NCBI RefSeq assembly: GCF_003725545.1
Contig: NZ_RJLN01000004.1
Location: forward strand, 1-64,000
Source of the DNA: Micromonospora solifontis
GTDB lineage: Bacteria > Actinomycetota > Actinomycetes > Mycobacteriales > Micromonosporaceae
Direction: 5' to 3'
DNA length: 64,000 bases
Under the pieces are notes generated by a model. It searched no databases. It worked only from the letters and a program-made list of their open reading frames with translations, and was not told the origin of the DNA. Position numbers and translations under genes: made by a program. Of the stretch, positions 34,052-35,777 are shown in pieces. The stretch's first letter is position 1. The number at the start of each line of letters is the position of its first letter.

Positions 34052-34399
34052 CTCGCCGGATTCCCCCGATGAACCGTTCCGAGCCTGCCCGGGTGTCCGG
34101 CGTCACCGCGGACAGCCCCGGCCGGTGGTGACCGCTGACACGGCAGAGCCTCCGATGGACAACGAAACGGGACCGCCGGATGTGACGCCCCGGGGCGGGC
34201 GGCGGAACATCGATCCGCGGCGTACCGTTGGCGGGACGCGACCGCGTGGACGCCGGGTCCCCCGTTCCTGGCGACCGGGTCGCGGCGGGTCGCCGGCAGG
34301 TCCCGAGCCGGCGACCCGCACCCTCTCCGCCGGCGTGCCACCTCCGCCGGCGTGCCTCCGCTCCCCGAAATCCGGGTGCGCCCGTCGAGCCGGCGGGCG
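34052..34399. other. Non-coding region upstream of the threonine leader
   Basis: No gene is visible. It contains two direct copies of CTCCGCCGGCGTGCC (34325-34339 and 34342-34356, 17-base period); GGCGTGCC recurs inside the leader ORF at 34451-34458. These could be an activator or repressor site for the ThrRS transcription unit. Confidence 0.4.
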
Positions 34400-34411
34400 T
34401 ACCGTCGCCGC
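34400..34411 (+). promoter_or_regulatory. Leaderless promoter of the threonine leader peptide
   Basis: TACCGT (34400-34405) ends 6 bases before the leader ATG, placing the transcript start at the start codon. No Shine-Dalgarno is present before the leader ORF. Confidence 0.55.
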
Positions 34412-34465
34412 ATGCGCAGCGCGGTGGTGACCACGACGCCGGGAATCCCCGGCGTGCCGCACTGA
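34412..34465 (+). CDS. Threonine-rich leader peptide of the ThrRS attenuator
   Basis: A 17-codon ORF, MRSAVVTTTPGIPGVPH, with three consecutive threonine codons (ACC ACG ACG at 34430-34438). It has the size and position of attenuator leader peptides: leaderless start, stop 12 bases before a terminator hairpin, and a threonyl-tRNA synthetase gene 97 bases downstream. The product itself is presumably unimportant; ribosome speed over the Thr codons would be sensed. The assignment is inference from the arrangement. Confidence 0.7.
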   Translation: MRSAVVTTTPGIPGVPH

Positions 34466-34510
34466 CGTATCCGTCGACGAGGCCCCGGGGCGAACCGCCC
34501 CGGGGCCTCG
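34436..34510 (+). promoter_or_regulatory. Attenuator: alternative hairpins and terminator before ThrRS
   Basis: Hairpin A pairs ACGCCGGG (34436-34443) with CCCGGCGT (34448-34455). The terminator stem pairs CGAGGCCCCGGGGCG (34478-34492) with CGCCCCGGGGCCTCG (34496-34510), 15 perfect pairs around an AAC loop. A third pairing, CCCCGG (34447-34452) with CCGGGG (34485-34490), would exclude both hairpin A and the terminator. A ribosome stalled on the Thr codons covers the 5' arm of hairpin A and would free its 3' arm for that antiterminator. No U tract follows the stem. Confidence 0.65.
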
Positions 34511-34562
34511 CGGCGTTCCGGGCCAGCTCGCCTCCGGGTCGTACCCGATCAAGGAGAGCGAC

Positions 34563-35777
34563 ATGATCGACCACCGCAGGCTCGGCCGGGAGCTGGAGCT
34601 GTTCGTCTCCGATCCCCTCGCGGGCGCCGGGCTGCCCATCTGGCTGCCGGCCGGCGCCGCCGCCCGGCACGCCGTCGAGGAGTACGTGCGGGACCTGGAG
34701 CGCCGGGCCGGCTACCGGCACGTCTATTCGCCGCCGCTGGGCAAGCGGGAGCTGTTCGAGATCTCCGGTCATCTCGGCTACTTCGCCGACGACATGTTCC
34801 CGCCTATGCGACTGAGCGCCGACGACGAGTTCGTGCTGCGTCCGGCGCTCTGCCCGCACCACGCGCTGGTCTACCGGGCCCGCGGCCGCTCCTACCGGGA
34901 GCTGCCGCTGCGGGTGGCCGAGATCGGCGGAATGTACCGGGCGGAACGGTCCGGGGTGCTCGGTGGACTGTCCCGGGTCCGCGCCATCTCGCTGAACGAC
35001 TCGCACAACTTCTGCGCGCTGGAGCAGGTCGGTGACGAGGTACGCGAGATCCTCCGGCTGATCCGCGCGGCGCACGCGGCGCTCGGGGTTCGGCCGGCGG
35101 GGTTCCGGCTGTCGCTGCGCGGGCCGGGGGAGAAGTACGTCGGCGACGACGCCCAGTGGGCGCGGGCCGAGGAGCTGCTCCGCGCCGCCCTCGACGGGGT
35201 CGACTTCGCCGAGGCTCCCGGCGAGGCGGCGTTCTACGGCCCGAAGATCGACATCCAGATCGTCGACGCGGCCGGCCGGGAGTCGACCATCTCCACCATC
35301 CAGCTCGACTTCGACAAGCCGGAGAAGTTCGACCTGTCGTACACCGACGCGGACGGAAGCCGGAAGCGGCCGGTGATGGTGCACCGGAGCCTGGTGGGCA
35401 GCATGGAACGGCTCTTCGCCTACCTGATCGAGGTGCACGCGGGCGCCTTCCCGGCCTGGTACGCCCCGGTGCAGCTGGTGCTCCTGCCGGTCGACGGCGG
35501 CCAGGCGGACGCCGCCGACGCGCTGGCCCGCCGGGCCGAGGCGGCCGGGCTGCGGGTCGAGGTCGACCACGCCGGTTCGCTGGGTGCCCGGATCCGCGAC
35601 GCGGCCCGGCGCAGGGTGCCGTACGTCGGCGTGGTCGGCGCCCGGGAGGCCGCCGACGGCTCGGTCTCCCTGCGCCTGCGCGACGGGCGCGGGCTCGACC
35701 CGATGCCGGCGGCCGACGCGCTGGGGCTGATCGGCGCGGTGGTGGCCGCCCGCTCGGCCGACCTGCTCCCGGGCTGA
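34563..35777 (+). CDS. Short threonyl-tRNA synthetase lacking TGS and editing domains
   Basis: A 404-residue ThrRS containing only the class II catalytic core and the anticodon-binding domain. Motif 2 region FVLRPALCPHHALVY, SYRELPLRVAEIGGMYR, FYGPKIDIQI and motif 3 VMVHRSLVGSMERLFAYL are present. The zinc ligands correspond to Cys97, His148 (NDSHNFC) and His274. The roughly 240-residue N-terminal TGS and editing domains of standard bacterial ThrRS are missing, so mischarged Ser-tRNA-Thr would not be corrected in cis. Probably a secondary synthetase beside a full-length one elsewhere. ATG follows AAGGAGAGCGAC. Controlled by the attenuator just upstream. Confidence 0.88.
   Translation: MIDHRRLGRELELFVSDPLAGAGLPIWLPAGAAARHAVEEYVRDLERRAGYRHVYSPPLGKRELFEISGHLGYFADDMFPPMRLSADDEFVLRPALCPHHALVYRARGRSYRELPLRVAEIGGMYRAERSGVLGGLSRVRAISLNDSHNFCALEQVGDEVREILRLIRAAHAALGVRPAGFRLSLRGPGEKYVGDDAQWARAEELLRAALDGVDFAEAPGEAAFYGPKIDIQIVDAAGRESTISTIQLDFDKPEKFDLSYTDADGSRKRPVMVHRSLVGSMERLFAYLIEVHAGAFPAWYAPVQLVLLPVDGGQADAADALARRAEAAGLRVEVDHAGSLGARIRDAARRRVPYVGVVGAREAADGSVSLRLRDGRGLDPMPAADALGLIGAVVAARSADLLPG

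What the first reader, a model, noticed from the sequence alone, without database searches (positions are those of the whole stretch)
34400..34562. Threonine leader-peptide attenuator in front of a threonyl-tRNA synthetase
A leaderless 17-codon ORF with Thr-Thr-Thr codons, an early hairpin, a 15-bp perfect terminator stem and a mutually exclusive antiterminator pairing lie in a 163-base leader directly before a ThrRS gene. In actinobacteria, ribosome-mediated attenuation is described for trp, ilv and leu genes and T-boxes for ileS. I know of no described threonine attenuator for a ThrRS in this group. Predicted behaviour: low charged tRNA-Thr stalls the ribosome and lets transcription continue into the synthetase.
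Basis: partly seen in the sequence, partly recalled or inferred. Interest (0 to 1): 0.88.

Follow-up and report, generated by a model that had tools for sequence, protein, structure and literature searches.

The report
Threonine switch before spare tRNA-charging enzyme
In front of a second, shortened gene for the enzyme that loads threonine onto tRNA, a soil bacterium carries a tiny reading frame with three threonine codons and two competing RNA folds, likely a switch that would turn the gene on when threonine-loaded tRNA runs short; relatives in nine bacterial families carry the same arrangement, and their genes almost never use ACG, the threonine codon that dominates the switch.

Summary
Window 34412-34465 encodes MRSAVVTTTPGIPGVPH* with a -10 box (TACCGT) 6 nt before the ATG, then a 15-bp hairpin (34478-34510), then a 404-aa ThrRS without the editing half (34563-35777), a second copy beside a full-length ThrRS. 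The leader precedes this gene (thrS2) in 81 of 81 loci compared first and in 144 of 144 further usable regions, from nine family labels. The terminator stem covaries. Region 2 can pair with the terminator's 5' arm in 102 of 105 leaders, but this pairing shows no covariation. Beyond what my searches found in print: the family-wide architecture, a WblC-type GAAAWY box in a quarter of the promoters, and a codon purge. Leader Thr codons are mostly ACG, while thrS2 genes use ACG for 4 of 878 Thr codons against 240 of 908 in the main ThrRS of 30 genomes; thrC and thrB are not purged, nor are other NNG codons. Response to tRNA charging is untested.

The parts
34367..34372 (+). GAAATC, matches the published WblC/WhiB7 box GAAAWY, 33 nt before the -10 start
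   Evidence: sequence; family scan; consensus from PMC7157823
34376..34381 (+). -35-like GTGCGC, 3 nt after the GAAAWY box (published TKGMNN met except its first base)
   Evidence: sequence; consensus
34400..34405 (+). -10 box TACCGT (TAnnnT), 6 nt before the leader ATG
34412..34465 (+). leader ORF MRSAVVTTTPGIPGVPH*, predicted leaderless
34430..34438 (+). regulatory Thr codons ACC ACG ACG
34437..34443 (+). region 1, pairs with region 2 (1:2 hairpin)
34447..34454 (+). region 2 CCCCGGCG, pairs with region 1 or with region 3
34463..34476 (+). predicted apical hairpin of the antiterminator (UGACG/CGUCG)
   Evidence: pairs in only 51.6% of cells on the alignment
34478..34492 (+). region 3, 5' arm of the terminator
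34496..34510 (+). region 4, 3' arm of the terminator
34551..34556 (+). Shine-Dalgarno AAGGAG of thrS2
34563..35777 (+). thrS2, 404-aa threonyl-tRNA synthetase, catalytic and anticodon-binding domains only; its three Thr codons are all ACC

Best explanation
This leader is likely a ribosome-mediated transcription attenuator: a ribosome stalled at the Thr codons of a predicted leaderless 17-codon ORF would let an antiterminator form and transcription run on into thrS2, a second threonyl-tRNA synthetase gene that lacks the editing half. Shown by sequence: ORF, Thr codons, 1:2 hairpin, covarying 3:4 stem, region 2 complementary to region 3, constant association with thrS2. Inferred: with charged tRNA-Thr the ribosome reaches the stop codon, covers region 2, and the 3:4 hairpin ends transcription; without it, the ribosome halts with its front edge between region 1 and region 2, region 2 pairs with region 3 as it emerges, and the terminator is pre-empted. 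Because leader codons are mostly ACG and thrS2 genes almost lack ACG, the signal read is probably shortage of charged tRNA-Thr that reads ACG (tRNAs with anticodons CGU and UGU are both in the genome), and the mRNA seems built to be translated while that tRNA is uncharged. A WblC-type box suggests that the promoter is fired during translation stress in part of the family, this window included.
For: Leader before thrS2 in 81 of 81 loci (80 by script; L014, TTTS, by eye) and in 144 of 144 usable further regions of 146 fetched (143 by script; L210 by eye, without a clear -10; left out: L145, contig end, and L087, a full-length ThrRS). Not found in 12 of 12 main-ThrRS upstream regions. Terminator: 13 of 15 pairs change on both sides in 99 sequences; all five measures of the 1:2 plus 3:4 structure exceed all 500 shuffles. 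T in the 8 nt after the stem 2.63 against 0.94 background, 99 of 106 above their own background. Region 2 pairs with region 3 by 5 bp or more in 102 of 105 nonredundant leaders, mean 9.7 pairs against 4.4 in shuffles, mean z -2.1; shuffling region 2 alone or the spacer alone weakens the fold (mean z -1.75 and -0.75). The codon before Pro-Ala-Arg changes (GTC, CCC, GCC, CTC, CCA) but ends in C in 71 of 72, redundant set; column 26 has no partner in the 1:2 stem in 51 of 99 leaders but pairs with the terminator arm in 96 of 99. Region 1 CCGG starts 9 nt after Thr1 in 103 of 104, region 2 CCGG 17-23 nt after it. ACG: second Thr codon ACG in 103 of 105 nonredundant leaders; thrS2 4 of 878 Thr codons ACG, 141 of 145 genes without any; main ThrRS 240 of 908, thrC 209 of 579, thrB 127 of 404.
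Against: No expression or 3'-end data for any member here. In S. lividans the authors call thrL termination unclear for lack of a U tract (PMC8079986), and the window has none. On the alignment the antiterminator does not covary beyond shuffles (pairs with both sides changed 4 against 5.6; covariation score 141 of 500 as high), and outside its 6-bp core its helices pair in only 51.6-61.5% of cells; the core CCGG is nearly invariant and palindromic, so region 2 could owe it to the 1:2 stem. The complete terminator is more stable than the antiterminator (means -29.0 and -20.7 kcal/mol), and the full RNA below a stalled ribosome still folds with the terminator, so the switch must be kinetic. Leader starts were picked by a script that asks for a -10 box 5-8 nt upstream, so that spacing is partly built in. 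thrB and thrC, which threonine hunger should also call on, do not avoid ACG. The window's first Thr codon is ACC.
Confidence: 0.82

Rival explanations
1. The leader responds to slowed ribosomes in general (translation-targeting antibiotics), as described for the uORF of wblC itself, and the Thr codons matter little.
For: thrS2 is listed as WblC-activated and wblC has uORF-mediated attenuation (PMC7157823, passages); GAAAWY box in 27 of 106 nonredundant promoters against 0.4 expected.
Against: Two or three adjacent Thr codons in each of the 224 leaders collected while flanking codons vary; ACG almost fixed at the second Thr codon, which lies outside the 1:2 stem; ACG purge of the gene.
Confidence: 0.1
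2. A Thr-rich nascent peptide is stalled by a drug on the ribosome (arrest-peptide sensor) rather than by uncharged tRNA.
For: Thr-Thr-Thr-Pro is conserved as peptide; preference of some peptidyl-transferase drugs for Thr in the nascent chain is recalled, from no call.
Against: A peptide sensor does not fix the wobble base; the second Thr codon is ACG in 103 of 105, and in-frame ACG alone is purged from the gene.
Confidence: 0.04
3. The hairpin is a translation or mRNA-stability element, or ThrRS2 binds its own leader, without transcription attenuation.
For: No U run in the window; ThrRS autoregulation in E. coli is mentioned in PMC2965389.
Against: The stem ends about 40 nt before the Shine-Dalgarno; the ORF with Thr codons and its near-fixed distance to regions 1 and 2 would be unexplained; T enrichment after the stem.
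Confidence: 0.04

Closest known systems
thrL upstream of thrS (SLIV_19410) in Streptomyces lividans TK24 (PMC8079986)
   Same: Leaderless short ORF, Thr-Thr-Pro and VPAR-stop peptide, one hairpin without U tract, before a thrS gene (passages)
   Different: Peptide MKRVRPFLETTPGFVPAR against MRSAVVTTTPGIPGVPH; the passages read give no antiterminator, family survey or codon pattern for it; whether SLIV_19410 is the short form was not checked here
trpRS1 of Streptomyces coelicolor (Vecchione and Sello 2010; only its title was seen, in a reference list)
   Same: Auxiliary synthetase gene under ribosome-mediated transcription attenuation
   Different: Trp has one codon, so no codon purge is possible; TrpRS1 is resistant to indolmycin (PMC9437257, passage), while resistance of ThrRS2 to any inhibitor is unknown
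WblC/WhiB7 regulon (PMC7157823)
   Same: thrS2 is listed; GAAAWY box and TAnnnT -10, start site 7-8 bp on (passages)
   Different: Box strictly matched in 27 of 106 nonredundant promoters, and with the published -35 (N3-TKGM) in 1 of 106
Duplicated ThrRS T1/T2 of Anabaena (PMC4787780)
   Same: Second ThrRS for stress, with impaired editing (passages)
   Different: T2 keeps a degenerate editing domain and is induced by low zinc; no leader peptide named in the passages read
E. coli thr operon attenuator
   Same: Thr codons in the leader; terminator and antiterminator (recalled)
   Different: Eight ACC codons (PMC1183508, passage) and a biosynthetic operon; here ACG and a synthetase

Membership tests
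Ribosome-mediated (leader-peptide) attenuator | Short ORF with a run of cognate codons before the gene | tested here: met
Ribosome-mediated (leader-peptide) attenuator | Conserved terminator hairpin between ORF and gene | tested here: met
   T enrichment, though no U run in the window
Ribosome-mediated (leader-peptide) attenuator | Mutually exclusive antiterminator freed by a stalled ribosome | tested here: inconclusive
   pairing in 102 of 105 and shuffles favour it; no covariation on the alignment
Ribosome-mediated (leader-peptide) attenuator | Read-through depends on charging of the cognate tRNA | not testable with these tools
   needs RNA data
thrL of S. lividans | Leaderless TTP...VPAR peptide before thrS | tested here: inconclusive
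   Streptomyces-type relatives match, e.g. MKRAQPFLTTTPDSVPAR against the published peptide; the window peptide ends in VPH, and the S. lividans gene itself was not fetched
T-box | Match to the Rfam T-box model | tested here: not met
   no Rfam family at gathering score in the window; weaker thresholds were not tried
WblC/WhiB7 promoter | GAAAWY box 3 nt before a TKGMNN -35, 16-19 nt spacer, TAnnnT | tested here: inconclusive
   window 34367-34405 fits except the first base of the -35; family: GAAAWY 27 of 106, with N3-TKGM 1 of 106
WblC/WhiB7 promoter | WblC binding and activation | not testable with these tools
   thrS2 listed as WblC-activated in S. coelicolor in PMC7157823, nothing seen for Micromonospora

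The most novel reading that the evidence does not exclude
Actinobacteria keep an editing-less emergency ThrRS whose whole mRNA is built around one isoacceptor: a WblC-fired, leaderless leader reads ACG to sense loss of charged tRNA-Thr(CGU), and the rescue gene has been purged of ACG so that it stays translatable exactly while that tRNA is empty. Sensor codon and forbidden codon are the same, across families, and biosynthetic thr genes do not share the purge.
Probability: 0.55. Interest if true: 0.8.

Novelty: new variant of a known kind. Interest (0 to 1): 0.64.

Why it matters
It turns a short note on one Streptomyces into a family of switches found with thrS2 in nine family labels, and gives a strong natural case for the idea that attenuator codons and the codons of the controlled gene are under opposite selection (selective charging of isoacceptors; PMC1183508 for the leader side). 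It makes a clear test possible: exchange ACG and ACC in leader and gene. It may also tie an amino-acid-specific sensor to the WblC antibiotic response.

Tried and rejected
Rfam: no family in the window at gathering score. Covariation of the antiterminator: tested and not found. Depletion of Thr itself in ThrRS2 as a starvation signature: dropped, because Lys and Asn are depleted more, probably composition; only the ACG wobble is specific. General avoidance of G-ending codons: rejected; of seven other boxes Gly and Arg rise strongly, Val and Leu slightly, Ala, Pro and Ser do not change significantly. Avoidance of the triplet ACG as such: rejected, out-of-frame ACG is not purged. A starvation-wide ACG avoidance: rejected by thrC and thrB. 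First -35 test used KTGM, not the published TKGM; repeated with TKGM (1 of 106). Outer stem between start and stop of the ORF: seen by eye, not counted, not claimed. 33 places match ACSACSACGCCGG in the own genome, against 8 for the reversed pattern; they were not examined for further leaders. No RNA model was built and no structure predicted.

Rows dropped: 13 of 15 same-genus matches were not fetched; 224 leaders were cut to 107 (mis-called terminators, overlong segments and more than 88% identity), 105 used, 99 of 107 given to the alignment (the eight left out by me are L091, L117, L129, L133, L171, L191, L196, L224). The loci and the genomes overlap in species. In some searches a few terminators are still mis-called (for instance L091, L129, L196). 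Literature claims rest on ten searches of openly licensed papers, of which I read listings and passages, no whole paper; Lopatovskaya 2010, Neshat 2014 and Wolf 2017 were seen only as references and may hold related predictions.

Full report
What is there. The window holds, on the + strand, a -10-like TACCGT (34400-34405), an ATG six bases later (34412), a 17-codon ORF with ACC ACG ACG, a first hairpin, a 15-bp second hairpin (34478-34510), a Shine-Dalgarno and a 404-aa ThrRS gene (34563-35777). Pfam finds only the class II core and the anticodon-binding domain; NCBIfam names it thrS above cut-off. The genome has a full-length ThrRS elsewhere (42% identical; ORF 717 aa), so the window gene is an auxiliary copy; I call it thrS2 after the usage in PMC7157823. 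The closest named loci are Micromonospora, so the window is from that genus (inferred).

Conservation. Of 80 related loci and the window, 80 of 81 show a short ORF with Thr-Thr-Thr-Pro and a TAnnnT box before its start by script, and the last (L014, TTTS) by eye. In whole genomes thrS2-like matches occur in 64 of 393 of the class, 95 of 150 of the family and 9 of 197 of the phylum at more than 410 bits, one of which (G140) is taken for a full-length ThrRS because its 500 bases upstream read on as ThrRS (by eye; frame 628 aa). I fetched 146 of these with up to 500 bases upstream. 143 have the leader by script, L210 by eye without a clear -10, L145 ends at the contig edge, and L087 is G140. So 144 of 144 usable regions carry it, from nine family labels (f1, f2, f4, f18, f29, f45, f69, f70, f71). 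Three of the 224 collected leaders have two Thr codons instead of three. The spacing from the -10 box to the start codon is 6 or 7 nt in 223 of 224, though the script asked for 5-8; PMC7157823 reports start sites 7-8 bp after the -10 in S. coelicolor (passage), so a leaderless transcript is likely but predicted. The same scan gives 0 of 145 on the reverse complement and 0 of 12 in main-ThrRS upstream regions.

Structure. On 99 diverse leaders the 1:2 and 3:4 helices pair in 88.4% of cells, with both-side changes at 15 of 22 pairs (2 of 7 in the 1:2 stem, 13 of 15 in the terminator), above all 500 shuffles and all slid versions. The alternative 2:3 core pairs in 92.9% of cells but does not covary, and the rest of the antiterminator drawn from the window pairs in only 51.6-61.5% of cells there. 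Tests that do not need variation favour a 2:3 pairing: with the Thr codons covered, region 2 pairs with the terminator's 5' arm by at least 5 bp in 102 of 105 leaders, about twice as many pairs as in shuffles; shuffling region 2 alone (99 of 105 natives more stable than the shuffle mean) or the spacer alone (78 of 105) weakens it; and the wobble base of the codon before Pro-Ala-Arg is C in 71 of 72 although the amino acid changes (redundant set). Column 26 of the alignment has no 1:2 partner in 51 of 99 leaders but pairs with the terminator arm in 96 of 99. The terminator is thermodynamically stronger than the antiterminator, so the order of synthesis must decide; this is inferred. T is enriched in the 8 nt after the stem (2.63 against 0.94, 106 leaders), but the window has no U run.

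Codon purge. Leader Thr codons are ACG in 94, 103 and 105 of 105 nonredundant leaders at the three places; the third lies in the 1:2 stem and the second does not. In thrS2 genes ACG is 4 of 878 Thr codons, and 141 of 145 genes have none; the window gene has three Thr codons, all ACC. In the same 30 genomes it is 2 of 235 in thrS2, 240 of 908 in the main ThrRS and 209 of 579 in thrC, and in 28 of them 127 of 404 in thrB; 29 of 30 thrS2/main pairs go the same way. In the 80 named loci it is 4 of 422, against 1402 of 5270 in 187 flanking ORFs picked by length and GC pattern. Sixty-four representatives under 75% identity give 3 of 390. None of seven other NNG boxes is significantly depleted, and ACG out of frame is not purged. 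The genome has tRNA-Thr with anticodons CGU, UGU and GGU among the 30 of 49 tRNA hits looked at. The selective-charging theory (PMC1183508, passages) says that leader codons should be those whose tRNA is most sensitive to starvation; that it also explains the purge is my inference.

Promoter. Both groups show an A-rich, GAAA-like stretch about 33 to 29 nt before the -10 start. The strict WblC box GAAAWY lies in the 37 to 20 nt before the -10 in 61 of 221 promoters (0.8 expected), 47 of them starting exactly at -33, and in 27 of 106 nonredundant ones (0.4 expected); plain GAAA is in 44 of 106, so 62 of 106 lack even that. With the published -35 at the published distance it is 1 of 106. PMC7157823 (passages) lists thrS2 among WblC-activated genes and gives the consensus; SCO3778 as threonyl-tRNA synthetase is named in PMC10771440 as a sigma-E site under ethanol stress; that thrS2 is SCO3778 is inferred. 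PMC7157823 also names alaS2, trpS and lysS as WblC-activated, and PMC8079986 finds leader peptides before alaS and trpS: spare synthetases with cognate leaders may be a general design (inference).

Verdict. What goes beyond print, within my ten searches of openly licensed papers, is the family-wide anatomy and the codon purge.

Noticed in passing
window 34563-35777 and relatives: In 30 genomes thrS2 genes are poorer in Lys and Asn as well as Thr than the main ThrRS (Lys 1.06 against 4.59%), probably GC-driven drift.
   Followed up: partly
window 34563-35777: The best solved-structure match by sequence is threonyl-tRNA synthetase 1 of entry 1nyq (367 bits; S. aureus by PMC7916415 for its sister entry 1nyr), better than the E. 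coli entry 1qf6 (264 bits) (that 1qf6 is E. coli is recalled); the gene may have come from outside the phylum.
   Followed up: no
G507:C6:207193-209178: A third ThrRS-like match (54% to the main one, frame 681 aa) in a genome that also has thrS2; could be a self-resistance copy.
   Followed up: no
G192, G669, G705: Three genomes of the same genus show no thrS2 match, so the gene seems dispensable.
   Followed up: no
L021, L023, L026 and relatives: A Micromonospora subgroup has a terminator stem interrupted by a bulge, which the simple stem finder-7 bp.
   Followed up: partly
window 34412-34465: The start and end of the leader ORF look complementary (CAGCGCGG with CCGCACTG), a possible outer stem around the whole ORF.
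   Followed up: no
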